Shown here piece by piece: positions 10,749-32,003 of a DNA stretch of 64,000 nucleotides; within the stretch, counting starts at the first letter, position 1; every line of letters starts with the position of its first letter. Below the pieces are notes generated by a model, which saw nothing but the letters and a program-made list of their open reading frames with translations, searched no databases and was not told where the DNA came from. The stretch lies in NCBI GenBank assembly GCA_030431255.1, contig JAUIJL010000003.1, positions 1 to 64,000 of the forward strand, in the 5' to 3' direction. A program made the position numbers and the translations under genes. This DNA comes from Thermoanaerobaculia bacterium (lineage in GTDB: Bacteria > Acidobacteriota > Thermoanaerobaculia > Multivoradales > J023).

Positions 10749-11174
10749 ATCTGCACTGCTCATAACTGCAAATGACTCATAAAATATTGAGCCGGCCGCC
10801 GAAATTCCCTTTCTAGACGATGTGGCGAGGCGCCTGTGTCCGCTCACATACCTTGGTTGCATTGTGTAAGTCTCTTGTTTTCAGCTTTTGTCGGCTGTCA
10901 TTCGATAAGCCCTCGGGCTGGGGCCGCCGAATTATTGCTTGAGTCTTTTGTTCTAACCGCACTGAAAGTGTCACAGCTGATGGAATGTGATTGGTTCGAA
11001 TCGTTTGACACTTCAGTGGCGTTGAGGTAAAAATCTCGTGCTCTCCGTAGTGGGGCGGCGAGATGGCCCAGCTCAATGGAATAGAACACCGGGCGACATT
11101 CACCTCGCTGCACAACCATTGGCGCTCGCGACGCACGGGCTCGATATTTGTGGTGGTGGATATGGACGTATCGA
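10749..11174. other. Intergenic region before the peptide cluster
   Basis: No convincing gene was found in these 426 bases. They hold a 59-bp imperfect inverted repeat (10960-11018) and a possible 39-codon ORF (11063-11182, MAQLNGIEHRATF...). That ORF overlaps the next start and shows no family features. The base composition is more AT-rich than the flanks, so the cluster promoter is probably here, but no clear -35/-10 pair stands out. Confidence 0.5.
10960..11018. repeat. Inverted repeat upstream of the peptide cluster
   Basis: The left arm cactgaaagtgtca (10960-10973) and right arm tgacacttcagtg (11006-11018) are complementary over 13 bp with one bulged base. They enclose about 32 bases. 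It could be a cis-regulatory hairpin or the end-to-end remnant of a small mobile element. No T-run follows, so it is not an obvious terminator. Confidence 0.75.
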
Positions 11175-11417
11175 ATGGCTAAGCGGCGGACACTCAAGGG
11201 TGGCTTGGCCGAGAATATGGACATCGTCGAAAAGGCTAAGCAGCGGGCGCTCGAGGCCCGCAGGCTGATACCGACCCGAGTTGAGGTAAGCCCCGGCCAT
11301 TGGATTTTCAAAATGGTCGAGCCTTCCGAAGCCGTGTCCGGCGTCGAGCCTTCCTCTGCCCTCGAGCCCTCCTCTACCCTCGAGCCACAGACAGGCGCTC
11401 AGTCGGAGTCGAGGTGA
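11175..11417 (+). CDS. Small basic protein with EPSS repeats at the head of the peptide cluster
   Basis: The protein has 80 residues from ATG 11175; the upstream in-frame ATG at 11148 (MWWWIWTYR) has no ribosome site. The N-terminal part is basic and helical (MAKRRTLKGGLAENMDIVEKAKQRALEARRL), then VEVSPGHWIFKMVEPSE. The tail is a low-complexity E-P-S-S-(A/T)-L repeat encoded by an 18-bp DNA duplication at 11346-11381. There are no cysteines, no signal peptide and no known domain. It is followed after four bases by the GTG start of the first eight-cysteine protein, so it belongs to the same transcript. I do not recognise it. A DNA- or leader-binding role is possible but unsupported. Confidence 0.6.
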   Translation: MAKRRTLKGGLAENMDIVEKAKQRALEARRLIPTRVEVSPGHWIFKMVEPSEAVSGVEPSSALEPSSTLEPQTGAQSESR

Positions 11418-11421
11418 TCCG

Positions 11422-12000
11422 GTGAGCTCGACGTCGAATACGGAAAAGGCGATGCCGGTCCTGGACGATAAGAGCTCGTCCCCCCGGATGGCGTCTTCAG
11501 CTGCCTCCTCCCCCCAAGAAACATCTCCCCGAAAAGCTGCTCGCGGAAAGACGCTCTTGCCGGTGATCGCCGAAGCCGGGGATACCCGACTGTGTCCGAG
11601 TTACAGCCCGAGAGAGCCGGGATCGGGTTGGGTTTTCGGCGTCGTCGAGCCGACTGAAGAGGGGCCCCGCATGGTGCCCTTAGACAAACCCGAAGCGGTG
11701 ACGGAGGCGGTCTTTCAAATGGCATCTCCGCTGCATCCCGGTGAGCTCTTTCGCATCACCGCACCGTGCATGGGAGCGCCTTGTAAGAATCACGGGGAGG
11801 GCGGCATCTGTCACTTGGCTCGCTCGGTAGCCAAAAGGCCGATCCCAAAAGTTTCAAAGGGGCTTCCGCCCTGCACCATTCGCGCGTCTTGTTTGTGGTG
11901 GGACCAAGAAGGCCGGGACGCCTGTGATCGCTGCACCGCTTTCACCACGACCACCAATACCACCCTCGCGGCCATTCAAGGCAAAGGGGCCGATGACTAG
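11422..12000 (+). CDS. Eight-cysteine protein, copy A, paired with a GG-leader peptide
   Basis: The protein has 192 residues from GTG 11422, which has GAGGTGAT upstream and starts just after the previous stop. The first 45 residues are Ser-rich and not conserved. The core from residue 46 (LLPVIAEAGD) is closely similar over its whole length to copy B at 12242. Shared features are LCPS-x-SPR-x-PG-x-GWVFGVV, an EGPRMV strand, PLHP-x-E-x-FRIT and CKN-x-GEGGICHL, then LPxCxIRxxCxWWxQEGxxACxxC. Eight cysteines in pairs suggest a metal or Fe-S site; this is inferred, no family assignment is certain. There is no signal peptide, so it is probably cytoplasmic. Its position directly before a leader peptide in both copies suggests a role in peptide handling. 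Confidence 0.8.
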   Translation: MSSTSNTEKAMPVLDDKSSSPRMASSAASSPQETSPRKAARGKTLLPVIAEAGDTRLCPSYSPREPGSGWVFGVVEPTEEGPRMVPLDKPEAVTEAVFQMASPLHPGELFRITAPCMGAPCKNHGEGGICHLARSVAKRPIPKVSKGLPPCTIRASCLWWDQEGRDACDRCTAFTTTTNTTLAAIQGKGADD

Positions 12001-12062
12001 TTTCAGAACGAGCGTTTGGACGGCACCTTATTGTGTACCGTGAAAACCTAAGGAGATCATCT

Positions 12063-12227
12063 ATGTCCGATTCCACTGAATCCAACCCGAAACCCGGTTT
12101 TGAGATTGAAGAGCTGAGCGACGACTCTTTGGAAGAAGTTTCTGGCGGTGAGTCTTGTACCGGTTGCGGGGGTGGCTGTGAACAAGACTGCAGCGGCACG
12201 GGTGGGGGACTCTCCCAGCAGATGTGA
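12063..12227 (+). CDS. GG-leader peptide 1 (putative RiPP/bacteriocin-like precursor)
   Basis: This 54-residue peptide follows a strong ribosome site (AAGGAGATCATCT). The acidic leader (residues 1-29) ends in F-E-I-E-E-L-S-D-D-S-L-E-E-V-S-G-G, the double-glycine pattern cut by C39-type peptidase-transporters. The 25-residue core has four cysteines (C32, C35, C39, C43) in a Gly-rich setting (CTGCGGGCEQDC) and the tail CSGTGGGLSQQM. Peptide 2 has the same leader logic and nearly the same tail. The gene sits between the two eight-cysteine proteins. The precursor role is inferred from leader architecture and repetition; no maturation enzyme is encoded nearby. Confidence 0.82.
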   Translation: MSDSTESNPKPGFEIEELSDDSLEEVSGGESCTGCGGGCEQDCSGTGGGLSQQM

Positions 12228-12241
12228 TCCAGGGAGAGCCC

Positions 12242-12691
12242 ATGAAGAAAAAGAATCTCTTACCGGTGATCGGTGATCTCGGCGACAAGAAGCTCTGTCC
12301 GAGCTTCAGTCCCAGAAGGCCTGGCAAAGGATGGGTCTTTGGTGTGGTGACTCCCACCGACGAGGGCCCGCGAATGGTGGCTTTGGAGAAACCGGAGCCG
12401 GTGACCGAAGAGACCTTTGCCATGGCCGCGCCACTGCATCCCAGCGAGGTCTTTCGAATCACCTCGCCGTGTGTGGAGGGTCATTGCAAGAATTTCGGCG
12501 AGGGTGGAATCTGCCACTTGGGGCATACCGTCTCCAAGAGTCGGGCCGAAGGTGAGGATCTTCCGGTTTGCCAGATTCGCCCGGAATGCGTTTGGTGGCA
12601 CCAAGAAGGGCCTGCAGCCTGTGCCCAATGCTCGAAGATGGTGACCAACAACGAGAAGAGCCGGGCGATGCGCGATGAGATGGGGCGTTGA
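12242..12691 (+). CDS. Eight-cysteine protein, copy B
   Basis: The protein has 149 residues from ATG 12242 (AGGGAGAG upstream), 14 bases after peptide 1. It aligns with copy A without the Ser-rich extension: LLPVIGDLGDKKLCPS, GWVFGVVTPTDEGPRMV, PLHPSEVFRIT, CVEGHCKNFGEGGICHL, LPVCQIRPECVWWHQEGPAACAQC. All eight cysteines and the WW-x-QEG motif are kept in both copies, pointing to a structural metal or cluster site. By eye, well over half of the aligned core positions are identical. That indicates a tandem duplication of an [eight-Cys protein + GG peptide] unit. The molecular function is unknown; a precursor-binding or maturation factor is my working hypothesis. Confidence 0.8.
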   Translation: MKKKNLLPVIGDLGDKKLCPSFSPRRPGKGWVFGVVTPTDEGPRMVALEKPEPVTEETFAMAAPLHPSEVFRITSPCVEGHCKNFGEGGICHLGHTVSKSRAEGEDLPVCQIRPECVWWHQEGPAACAQCSKMVTNNEKSRAMRDEMGR

Positions 12692-12789
12692 TCCCCTACT
12701 TTTCTCAGTCAGCAGTGAGTCGCGCTCGGTACGGGAAGGGATCCCGGCTTCGGCCGTCCGTACAAATCCACAACCGCTGAGGAGCAGAG

Positions 12790-12975
12790 ATGACGAAAGA
12801 CGACAAAACTCAACCGCAAGACAAACTGCCTGAATTCGGCATTGCGGAGATGGAAGAGCTCCAGGACGACGCGCTGGACGACGTCTCCGGAGGGTCGGAC
12901 TGTGGCGGCTGCACTCTGTGCGGCGGTGTCAGCCCTGATTGCAGCGGAGGCGGTGGTCCGAGTCAGAACGTTTAG
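12790..12975 (+). CDS. GG-leader peptide 2 (putative RiPP/bacteriocin-like precursor)
   Basis: This 61-residue peptide starts at ATG 12790 (GAGGAGCAG upstream). The leader ends in F-G-I-A-E-M-E-E-L-Q-D-D-A-L-D-D-V-S-G-G (Gly 34-35), parallel to peptide 1. The 26-residue core SDCGGCTLCGGVSPDC has four cysteines (38, 41, 44, 51) and the tail CSGGGGPSQNV, almost identical to that of peptide 1. Cysteine spacing differs (C-x2-C-x2-C-x6-C against C-x2-C-x3-C-x3-C), so the mature products would not be simple copies. It follows copy B of the eight-cysteine protein by about 100 bases. Confidence 0.82.
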   Translation: MTKDDKTQPQDKLPEFGIAEMEELQDDALDDVSGGSDCGGCTLCGGVSPDCSGGGGPSQNV

Positions 12976-13065
12976 GAATCCGTAGACCGCTCTGGAAAAG
13001 TTTCGAGTAGCCATGATGCATGGCTCGGTTACCCAAAAAAGCCTTTCGAGGCCAAGGAGAAGCAC

Positions 13066-13203
13066 GTGAAGAAAGATCCGAATGCCATCAAAGAGCCGAA
13101 GTTCGACATCAAAGAGGTCGAGGACGAGCAGATGCTCACCGACATCGCCGGGGGATGGGGGAGCTGCAGCGGTGGTCCCCCCACCGACGGCACGGGTGGG
13201 TGA
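13066..13203 (+). CDS. GG-leader peptide 3, short GTG-started precursor-like peptide
   Basis: This 45-residue peptide has an excellent ribosome site (AAGGAGA, five bases before GTG 13066). The leader KEPKFDIKEVEDEQMLTDIAGG keeps the F-x-I-x-E-x-E-x-x-x-L-x-D-(V/I)-x-G-G pattern of peptides 1 and 2. The core is only 15 residues, WGSCSGGPPTDGTGG, with one cysteine. It is the last gene before a strong terminator. Because of its size and GTG start it is easily missed. It could be a divergent precursor, a decoy or a truncated copy. Confidence 0.75.
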   Translation: MKKDPNAIKEPKFDIKEVEDEQMLTDIAGGWGSCSGGPPTDGTGG

Positions 13204-13227
13204 TTCCCGCTCATCGAGCCTTCAGCC

Positions 13228-13259
13228 GCCGATCGGACCTTCGGGTTCGATCGGCTTTT
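13228..13259 (+). terminator. Intrinsic terminator of the peptide cluster
   Basis: A perfect 8-bp stem gccgatcg / cgatcggc (13228-13235 and 13248-13255) with a 12-base loop is followed at once by TTTT. It begins 25 bases after the stop of peptide 3 and closes the 11.2-13.2 kb transcript. Confidence 0.88.
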
Positions 13260-13393
13260 CATTTAGGGGGCTGCGTCGCTGCCGAACCCCAGGGCTGCTT
13301 CGGATTGACGATTCCGACTCGGATGGTTAGGTTTGCGCTCCGTGACCGGCGACCGTCCCGCCGGGTCCAACCAACGTCAGGATAGGAGACATC

Positions 13394-30839: not shown

Positions 30840-32003
30840 ATGAGTCCGCAGCATTTCAACCCAGACAACCATCACCGCTCAGACGGCCATGAAGGCCGAC
30901 TTCGATTCCATCGTCCTTTTCGATCAAACCGTCCATTCCAGTTTAGAGGTAGAGCTCTGAGCGCCCGATTGGGCGTGGCGGGTCTCACCCTGATGATGAT
31001 CACCCCGCCGGTTTGGGCGATCCCGGAGAGTCAACCGGAACGCAGCCAACGGTCCGCGGATCAGCAACGCAAACCCCAGGTTCGCGGTCACAGCAGCAAG
31101 CCTAATAGGGACTCTCGCTCCGAGCGTCGCCGTGAGGGCCGGCGCAACGATCGTTCCGAAAGGCGCGGCTCCGCCAGCCAAAGGAATCATCAGGAGTCCC
31201 GAGGTCAAGGTCAGACCCATCGTCGCCAGGAGTCCCGTCGGGAGCATCGGCAAGACCGACGTCAAGAGCGCCGACGCAATCAGGATCGGCGACAAGAGCA
31301 ACGCCACGAGATTCGCCGGGAACGGCGTCAGGATCACCGTCGGGATCACCGAGCCGATCGCCGCCAGGAGCGTCGAGCCGAACGAAACCATGAGCGTCGG
31401 CACGATCGCAGGGCTGACCAACGCCACGAGCGTCGTCATGAGCGCCGGGCCGACCGTCGTGACCACCGTGCCGACCGTCGGGATCATCGCCGGGATCATC
31501 GCCGGGATCATCGCTACGACCGTCGAGATCATCGCTATGATCGGCGTGACCATCGCTCAGACCATCAATACCGCGATAGGAATCGCCACCACGGCAAGCG
31601 CTACCATCACTACGACCGCAATCACTACCGGGTGAAGCGTGGATACGAGTCGAGATACCATCGTCGGGCCCGCCACCGTGAGTGGATTCGGCGCCAGAAT
31701 CGAGCTTGGTACGACTGCCATGACTACGGCGGCTTCTACGTCAGGTTGGGACGTTATCTAGATTACCGCTTCGACATTCCGCGGTTTATCCGCCACGACC
31801 ACCTGAGTCGCTACGACGAGTACTACTACGGTCAGGTCTACCACGGTCCCCACGACGAGATTTACGACGTGTATCTCTTCCCGGTCTACTTACATGATCG
31901 CGTGGAATATCGACCGTATGTCTATTGTGACGGTAAGTTTTTCGGTCGCGCCCGATTCGATTCCTACGGTGGCTTGAATTTCGAAGTCGGTTTCCGATTC
32001 TGA
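30840..32003 (+). CDS. Exported Arg/His/Asp-rich repeat protein with a compact aromatic C-terminal domain
   Basis: The protein has 387 residues from ATG 30840 (GCAGGAGGTG upstream). A hydrophobic segment at about residues 42-60 (LGVAGLTLMMITPPVWA) looks like a signal peptide with a long basic n-region. Residues about 65-280 are made of R/H/D-rich units such as RRDHRRDHRYD and RRQERRAERNH, mostly in 4-residue RRDH register. The last 90 residues are different: Tyr/Asp-rich and folded-looking (YDCHDYGGFYVRLGRYLDYRFD, VYLHDRVEYRPYVYCDGKFFG, end NFEVGFRF). Alternating basic and acidic residues suggest an extended polyampholyte that may bind metal ions, polyanions or the envelope. No close family is recognised. 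The DNA is an imperfect 12-base repeat. Confidence 0.72.
   Translation: MSPQHFNPDNHHRSDGHEGRLRFHRPFRSNRPFQFRGRALSARLGVAGLTLMMITPPVWAIPESQPERSQRSADQQRKPQVRGHSSKPNRDSRSERRREGRRNDRSERRGSASQRNHQESRGQGQTHRRQESRREHRQDRRQERRRNQDRRQEQRHEIRRERRQDHRRDHRADRRQERRAERNHERRHDRRADQRHERRHERRADRRDHRADRRDHRRDHRRDHRYDRRDHRYDRRDHRSDHQYRDRNRHHGKRYHHYDRNHYRVKRGYESRYHRRARHREWIRRQNRAWYDCHDYGGFYVRLGRYLDYRFDIPRFIRHDHLSRYDEYYYGQVYHGPHDEIYDVYLFPVYLHDRVEYRPYVYCDGKFFGRARFDSYGGLNFEVGFRF

What the first reader, a model, noticed from the sequence alone, without database searches (positions are those of the whole stretch)
11175..13263. Unrecognised ribosomal-peptide cluster: three GG-leader peptides interleaved with two eight-cysteine proteins
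In 2 kb on one strand the order is small basic protein, eight-Cys protein A, peptide 1, eight-Cys protein B, peptide 2, peptide 3, terminator. Peptide leaders share F-x-I-x-E-x-E-x-L-x-D-x-x-L-x-(D/E)-(V/I)-x-G-G; cores are Gly/Cys-rich. Known RiPP and bacteriocin systems couple such leaders to C39 peptidase-transporters and often to a modifying enzyme, and none is here. The repeated [eight-Cys protein + peptide] unit suggests that the eight-Cys protein is the dedicated partner.
Basis: partly seen in the sequence, partly recalled or inferred. Interest (0 to 1): 0.88.

Follow-up and report, generated by a model that had tools for sequence, protein, structure and literature searches.

The report
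Peptide genes paired with eight-cysteine partner
A bacterium carries small export-leader peptides next to an unnamed eight-cysteine protein, and the same peptide-plus-partner pair recurs in distant bacterial phyla, which points to an unrecognised way of making or handling small peptides.

Summary
The six genes are real and read as one operon (11,175-13,255). The 8-Cys proteins have no significant match in Pfam, NCBIfam, PHROGs, PADLOC or PDB, yet relatives occur in Acidobacteriota, cyanobacteria, Pseudomonadota, Streptomyces and Spirosoma; all eight Cys are invariant in 23 of 23 aligned members. In 21 of 22 loci of one genome scan a small peptide gene lies directly upstream. In gamma- and betaproteobacteria it has a GG leader, followed by 8-Cys, HlyD and a C39 exporter. 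Peptide profiles trained on other lineages rank the partner peptide first in 26 of 30 loci; in the window they pick the 'small basic protein'. C39 exporters exist in this genome (six). P1-P3 have 14 paralogues there, 12 in arrays behind two glycosyltransferases with RRE-like tails. Best reading: a cytoplasmic, probably metal-binding protein that binds and matures or escorts leader-bearing peptides; its chemistry is not shown.

The parts
11005..11034 (+). promoter-like site (TTGACA-18-AAAAAT)
   Evidence: consensus match only, 1 found against 0.5 expected
11175..11417 (+). small basic protein (80 aa): stand-alone partner peptide with helix motif AKQRALEARR and PGHWIFKMVEP
   Evidence: first of 1131 window open frames with 2 of 4 partner-peptide profiles (GG-type, E 0.02; all peptides, E 0.17), not in the listed top six of the other two; first again (E 0.2); rank 30-452 with shuffled training; same helix fused to 8-Cys in Nostoc
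11422..12000 (+). 8-Cys protein A (192 aa, Ser-rich N-terminal extension)
   Evidence: 8-Cys family member, all 8 Cys invariant in 23 sequences; starts 4 bases after the small protein
12063..12227 (+). P1: GG-leader peptide, core ESCTGCGGGCEQDCSGTGGGLSQQM
   Evidence: second of 1131 frames with the GG-type partner profile (E 0.22)
12242..12691 (+). 8-Cys protein B (149 aa; alternative GTG start at 12224 overlaps the P1 stop)
12790..12975 (+). P2: GG-leader peptide, core SDCGGCTLCGGVSPDCSGGGGPSQNV
   Evidence: third of 1131 frames with the GG-type profile (E 2.5)
13066..13203 (+). P3: GG-leader peptide, core WGSCSGGPPTDGTGG
13228..13255 (+). intrinsic-terminator-like hairpin followed by TTTT

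Best explanation
The locus holds two tandem [leader-bearing peptide, then 8-Cys protein] units (small protein/A and P1/B) plus two extra GG peptides. The 8-Cys protein is a soluble cytoplasmic protein whose eight invariant Cys most likely bind metal (two Fe-S or Zn sites). It recognises its cognate small peptide, most likely through the A..RAL.AR helix, and matures or escorts the core that follows. GG-type peptides are then cut and exported by a C39 transporter: encoded next door in gamma- and betaproteobacteria, presumably in trans from another contig here. Shown: gene order, the conserved pair, invariant Cys, linkage to HlyD/C39, NHLP, Nif11/radical-SAM and ATP-grasp peptide loci, the helix fused to 8-Cys in Nostoc, C39 genes in this genome. 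Inferred: metal binding, leader binding, maturation or chaperone role, export in trans.
For: Relatives in 22 loci; a small same-strand peptide gene directly upstream in 21 of 22 (judged by eye), in the 22nd (Microcoleus) beyond a DDE transposase and one more gene. Held-out-lineage profiles rank the partner peptide first among all open frames in 26 of 30 loci, window included; shuffled training gives 1-7 of 30. Eight Cys plus R, W, Q invariant in 23 of 23. 16 of 17 hits in the order of Methylomonas have GG peptide, 8-Cys, HlyD and the start of a C39 gene in that order. Cyanobacterial loci sit beside TIGR04103 radical SAM maturases (3 of 3 tested), an MvdC ATP-grasp maturase (1), HlyD/C39 genes; Nostoc plasmid: Nif11 and NHLP precursors and that maturase; Spirosoma: NHLP export genes, a DUF7005 gene, a peptide with leader LTDDALDAVSGG, then 8-Cys. 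Helix AKQRALEARR of the small protein recurs as AKQRAIEARQ fused to Nostoc 8-Cys.
Against: No catalytic family or fold recognised; the model is poor (mean pLDDT 60). The hosts of L017, L019, L022 (Acidobacteriota) and L037 (Ruegeria) have the pair but no Peptidase_C39 match (some are incomplete MAGs), so export is not its universal role. P1-P3 lack the G-I-I type core. No partner peptide in L099, L100 or Polymorphobacter; the two Streptomyces peptides rank 14 and 4. Of four profiles two do not list the small protein in their top six. The strict helix pattern is in 15 of 38 peptides. Metal binding was not tested.
Confidence: 0.5

Rival explanations
1. The 8-Cys protein is the cognate immunity protein: it stays in the producer's cytoplasm and sequesters or blocks the peptide it is encoded with.
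For: Close adjacency with the peptide; two different peptide/8-Cys pairs in one operon; position between peptide and exporter in gammaproteobacteria.
Against: Eight Cys and further residues are invariant across phyla although the peptides vary greatly; immunity proteins usually vary with their peptide and are often membrane-bound (recalled). P2 and P3 have no 8-Cys gene of their own.
Confidence: 0.2
2. The pair is an intracellular two-gene module (toxin-antitoxin-like or regulatory) that has only secondarily joined peptide-export loci.
For: Sporadic distribution: 5 of 396, 17 of 201, 15 of 338, 1 of 250 and 9 of 248 genomes, centre genomes included; pairs beside unrelated genes in other Acidobacteriota; hosts without C39.
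Against: GG, NHLP or Nif11 leaders and linkage to export or maturation genes in gamma, beta, cyanobacteria and Spirosoma; no PADLOC or PHROG match better than E 0.02 (9 proteins each).
Confidence: 0.15
3. P1-P3 are ordinary members of the genome's own Cys-rich GG-peptide family, matured in trans by the two glycosyltransferases with RRE-like tails and exported by C39 on contig C44; the 8-Cys genes serve the small basic protein only.
For: 14 paralogues with the same leader outside the window, 13 on C44, 12 of them in arrays behind the two glycosyltransferases; two C39 genes on C44 at 78 and 90 kb.
Against: P1 is coupled to 8-Cys B (14-base gap or overlap) as partner peptides are in relatives; P1 and P2 rank second and third with the GG-type partner profile, though with weak E-values and not with the all-peptide profile.
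Confidence: 0.3

Closest known systems
Double-glycine bacteriocin loci with HlyD and C39 ABC transporter (cyanobacterial groups of PMC3140520; passages read)
   Same: GG-leader small peptides; HlyD and C39 exporter next to the 8-Cys pair in gamma/betaproteobacteria and in some cyanobacteria
   Different: The word 'cysteine' occurs 0 times in that paper's main text; in the window the exporter is not adjacent
Nif11/NHLP precursor loci with nif11-class peptide radical SAM maturase 3 (TIGR04103)
   Same: In several cyanobacteria the 8-Cys pair sits beside such genes
   Different: No such maturase among the window neighbours and no Nif11/NHLP leader match for P1-P3
Glycocins (GG leader, Cys-rich core, glycosyltransferase; e.g. 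PMC12457901, search listing and abstract start only)
   Same: P1-P3 paralogues on C44 are Cys-rich GG peptides behind glycosyltransferases
   Different: These glycosyltransferases are GT4-like with a PqqD-like C-terminus just under Pfam's cut-off; none is beside P1-P3
Class IIc bacteriocin leader (Pfam PF10439)
   Same: Weak leader similarity of P1 and P2
   Different: 14.4 and 17.0 bits against a cut-off of 27.1

Membership tests
8-Cys/partner-peptide family (defined here) | eight invariant Cys in the family spacing | tested here: met
   A and B carry all 8; invariant in 23 of 23
8-Cys/partner-peptide family (defined here) | small partner peptide gene directly upstream on the same strand | tested here: met
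   small protein 4 bases before A, P1 14 bases before or overlapping B; ranks 1 and 2 of 1131 with the GG-type profile
8-Cys/partner-peptide family (defined here) | hydrophobic G-I-I type core in the partner peptide | tested here: inconclusive
   small protein has PGHWIFKMVEP, only loosely like PREWYGIILHP or PRIWVGIWIDP; absent from P1-P3 (by eye)
RiPP cluster of a known class | known modifying enzyme next to the precursor | tested here: not met
   tested neighbours: carbonic anhydrase, SDR and PLP decarboxylase downstream, PQQ-propeller protein and sodium/solute symporter upstream
RiPP cluster of a known class | leader-bearing precursor peptides | tested here: met
   P1-P3 leaders and 14 paralogues
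C39-exported GG peptides | Peptidase_C39 transporter in the same genome | tested here: met
   6 places, all over the cut-off
C39-exported GG peptides | cleavage after GG and secretion | not testable with these tools
   needs mass spectrometry
Nif11/NHLP natural product precursors | Nif11 or NHLP leader domain | tested here: not met
   no such NCBIfam match to P1, P2, P3
Glycocin | glycosyltransferase adjacent to the precursor | tested here: not met
   none among the tested neighbours of P1-P3; two on C44 beside paralogues
Class IIc bacteriocin (PF10439) | score over the gathering cut-off | tested here: not met
   14.4 and 17.0 against 27.1 bits
Toxin-antitoxin pair | peptide toxic alone, neutralised by partner | not testable with these tools
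   only a PADLOC scan without a significant match

The most novel reading that the evidence does not exclude
The 8-Cys protein founds a new class of RiPP partner: a small metalloprotein (two metal sites in eight Cys) that recognises an A..RAL.AR leader helix, present in cis on the precursor, as a separate small protein, or fused to itself, and installs an unknown modification on the adjacent core; it is portable across five phyla and across C39, NHLP, radical-SAM and ATP-grasp peptide loci, and works without a C39 exporter in some bacteria.
Probability: 0.33. Interest if true: 0.88.

Novelty: new variant of a known kind. Interest (0 to 1): 0.72.

Why it matters
A protein family with eight invariant cysteines and no name in the libraries searched, tied to small, often leader-bearing peptides in phyla as far apart as Acidobacteriota, cyanobacteria, Pseudomonadota and Bacteroidota (and, more weakly, Streptomyces), is a ready marker for peptide loci that tools keyed to known modifying enzymes would miss. 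Isolate genomes among the hosts (Methylomonas, Nostoc, Ruegeria) make it directly testable.

Tried and rejected
Viral contigs gave no relative. The six-member alignment A5 had no stretch conserved enough for the genome-contig scan; a five-member one worked. AlphaFold with window B as query was poor (pLDDT 44); with a gammaproteobacterial member better but still poor (60; N-terminal part fair, Cys-rich half not), and fold searches found nothing (best E 2.5; no Z of 2 or more). PDB sequence profile: best E 0.98, unrelated. The glycosyltransferase of C44 was found in this genome only of 98 searched, so its link to P1-P3 could not be tested by comparison. Rejected: leaders as parts of longer structured proteins (frames are short and the leader recurs in 14 paralogues). 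Not concluded: that 8-Cys is absent from print. Eight paper searches listed nothing on it, but three lists were capped (12 of 1,031, 15 of 22, 12 of 21) and the library is partial. Literature was seen as search listings and abstract starts, except passages of PMC3140520.

Limits of my tests. 'Upstream peptide' calls were made by eye. In one search one listed row (L016) had no coordinates and was skipped, leaving 30; training peptides were chosen by adjacency, two (L120, L130) by motif because they are not directly upstream; several loci are near-duplicates (L031/L032, L027/L028, L033/L034); the label 'terriglobia' covers other Acidobacteriota too, and for the window test these stayed in the training set (the GG-type profile has none of them and ranks the small protein first as well). 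The rule that marks the target frame also admits overlapping frames (44 marked frames for 30 loci); the printed top frames are the right ones for all rank-1 rows. Some loci are the genomes again (L071/L032, L072/L031, L089/L024, L105/L034, L108/L035, L109/L037 by coordinates).
Full report
What is there. Six genes on the + strand between 11,175 and 13,203 are followed by a terminator-like hairpin of 12 pairs (13,228-13,255). In order: small basic protein (80 aa), 8-Cys A (192 aa), P1 (54 aa), 8-Cys B (149 aa), P2 (61 aa), P3 (45 aa). Gaps are 4, 62, 14, 98 and 90 bases; a GTG for 8-Cys B would overlap the P1 stop. So the closest pairs are small protein/A and P1/B: the unit is peptide then 8-Cys. 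The tested flanking genes are ordinary: symporter and PQQ-propeller protein before, carbonic anhydrase, short-chain dehydrogenase and a PLP decarboxylase after. The organism is an acidobacterium by inference: genome G167 of its phylum set has a contig of 214,236 bases whose 8-Cys locus lies where that of record JAOAPY010000011.1 (214,236 bases, 'Acidobacteria bacterium') lies.

The 8-Cys family. No significant Pfam, NCBIfam or PDB-sequence match for 23 family members (best E 0.04, 0.05 and 0.98), nor PHROG or PADLOC match for the 8-Cys proteins among the 9 proteins given (best E 0.02). Relatives were found in 5 of 396 genomes of the phylum (profile of three), 17 of 201 of the order of Methylomonas, 15 of 338 of the class of Microcoleus, 1 of 250 of the order of a Rhodocyclaceae genome, 9 of 248 of the family of Ruegeria, the centre genomes included, and in 22 loci of the collection of 84,980 species genomes (a scan by two short patterns, 111 stretches matched, hence a lower bound). 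Plasmid records add Nostoc, Agrobacterium vitis, Streptomyces, Spirosoma and Polymorphobacter (9 records, 8), where the listed names are 'hypothetical protein' or none. In 23 of 23 aligned members the eight Cys, the CPS motif and single R, W and Q residues are invariant.

The partner peptide. In 21 of the 22 loci a small same-strand peptide gene ends just upstream of the 8-Cys gene (in L026 the contig end cuts it). In the Microcoleus locus it lies beyond a DDE-superfamily transposase and one more gene. Among the 44 loci, a motif-bearing upstream peptide (by eye) is seen in all 17 of the order of Methylomonas (least clear in L087), in the one beta locus and in all 9 of the family of Ruegeria (in L114 split over two frames). 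Of 17 cyanobacterial loci it is upstream in 10; the rest are Microcoleus again (L089), one with the peptide downstream (L097; L120), two without one (L099, L100) and three degenerate copies (L101, L102, L104). Of six plasmid loci read, five have a small gene upstream and Polymorphobacter has none that fits. The peptides share an amphipathic stretch (A..RAL.AR in its clearest form, matched by a strict pattern in 15 of 38) and, mostly, a later hydrophobic G-I-I type stretch (PPITVGLIA, GIIAGG, PREWYGIILHP). Profiles trained on peptides of other lineages, then run on all open frames of each locus, put the partner peptide first in 26 of 30 loci, second in 2, and 14th and 4th in two Streptomyces loci. 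Training on shuffled peptides gives 1 to 7 of 30 over eight trials. In the window the first of 1131 frames is the small basic protein (E 0.2). In one search it is first with the GG-type profile (E 0.02; P1 second, P2 third) and with the all-peptide profile (E 0.17), but neither it nor P1-P3 is in the listed top six of the profiles made from Acidobacteriota peptides alone or from alphaproteobacterial peptides plus L006. The E-values are modest, so rank and position carry the argument. In cyanobacteria a helix of this kind is fused to the N-terminus of the 8-Cys protein: in L133 and L030 (Nostoc) a helix profile finds it (E 0.012), in L025 and L100 only a pattern does. The Nostoc one reads AKQRAIEARQ against AKQRALEARR in the window's small protein. 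In L025, L030 and L133 the upstream precursor is long (162-185 aa); L133's is annotated as NHLP leader family, and the other two look alike by eye.

Links to peptide export and maturation. In 16 of 17 hits of the order of Methylomonas, and in L026, L029, L031, L032, L033 and L034, the order is GG peptide, 8-Cys, HlyD, C39 transporter; L028 shows HlyD before its contig ends (flanks often end inside the C39 gene, and some of these are the same genomes). In cyanobacteria the pair sits beside radical SAM maturases (TIGR04103 over cut-off in 3 of 3 tested: L118, L121, L124; a radical SAM/SPASM protein in L120), an MvdC ATP-grasp maturase (L123), HlyD and C39 (L119), HlyD (L122) and a PpiC-related protein below its cut-off (L120). 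The Nostoc plasmid has Nif11 and NHLP precursors next to it. In Spirosoma the pair follows the NHLP export genes and a DUF7005 gene, and its peptide carries the leader LTDDALDAVSGG, close to LSDDSLEEVSGG of P1 and LQDDALDDVSGG of P2.

Results against a pure export reading. Of 13 host genomes searched, Peptidase_C39 is over the cut-off in 8; no match at all in the hosts of L017, L019, L022 (Acidobacteriota) and L037 (Ruegeria), and one below the cut-off in the host of L027. Several of these genomes are MAGs and may be incomplete. There the pair stands without C39. So either the peptide acts inside the cell in those lineages or it leaves by another route; the Streptomyces peptides look by eye as if they begin with a Sec signal.

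P1-P3 in their own genome. A profile of P1-P3 finds 14 further peptides in the genome: 13 on contig C44 and 1 on C35. On C44, seven and five of them stand behind two 674-aa GT4-type glycosyltransferases with a PqqD-like C-terminus (PqqD 21.1 and 20.8 bits, just under the cut-off of 23.4); cores read like CTGCEGCDRCNGCDGQGGG. The same contig has a lanthipeptide dehydratase and two C39 transporters. P1-P3 thus belong to a local Cys-rich GG family; export in trans by these transporters is plausible, not shown. The glycosyltransferase was found in 1 of 98 genomes searched, this one.

Mechanism. The best-supported reading is that the 8-Cys protein is the dedicated cytoplasmic partner of the peptide encoded just before it. 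Eight invariant Cys in a protein without a signal peptide visible to the eye argue for metal sites rather than disulfides (inference). The fused helix argues that the helix is what 8-Cys works with (inference from fusion). Whether 8-Cys modifies, escorts or neutralises the peptide is open; I put about one half on maturation or escort. No catalytic family, fold or metal was identified.

Novelty. The exporter and leader logic is known (PMC3140520, passages read). The 8-Cys partner and its cross-phylum pairing have no entry in the family libraries searched, and eight paper searches (listed under Tried and rejected, some lists capped) showed nothing; the library is partial. I file it as a new variant of a known kind (leader-peptide loci), with a realistic chance that it is a new class of peptide-maturing protein.

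Noticed in passing
own genome G000:C44:100,954-110,850 (L068): Two 674-aa GT4-type glycosyltransferases with a PqqD/RRE-like C-terminus, each followed by an array (7 and 5) of Cys-rich GG-leader peptides: a glycocin-like locus of unusual make-up.
   Followed up: partly
own genome G000:C44:72,109-80,578 (L062): Lanthipeptide dehydratase (N and C domains), PRMT-like methyltransferase, GAF-domain protein and a C39 ABC transporter in a row.
   Followed up: partly
own genome G000:C35:300,603-305,486 (L070): Lant_dehydr_C protein, a peptide with CGST repeats, a LanC-like protein, an S8 protease and one more Cys-rich GG peptide.
   Followed up: partly
L025, L030, L133, L100: Cyanobacterial 8-Cys proteins carry an N-terminal extension with a helix like the partner peptides' (AKQRAIEARQ in Nostoc).
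   Followed up: yes
L130 5,450-7,914 (Microcoleus): A DDE-superfamily transposase gene and one further gene separate the partner peptide from the 8-Cys gene.
   Followed up: partly
window 11,175-11,417 and the N-terminal parts of 8-Cys A and B: PGHWIFKMVEP in the small protein resembles PGSGWVFGVVEP / PGKGWVFGVVTP near the 8-Cys N-terminus; possibly a shared beta-strand motif, not tested.
   Followed up: no
L135, L136 (Streptomyces plasmids): The gene upstream of 8-Cys encodes a short protein with a Sec-like N-terminus (by eye) and a C-terminal GID...C end, beside NRPS-type genes.
   Followed up: partly
MT836289.1 (L139): An unverified, unannotated 'Bacteriophage sp.' scaffold encodes an 8-Cys protein 50% identical to the gammaproteobacterial one; possibly a bacterial scaffold.
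   Followed up: no
window 30,840-32,003: A 387-aa open frame with a long Arg/His/Asp-rich repetitive middle.
   Followed up: no
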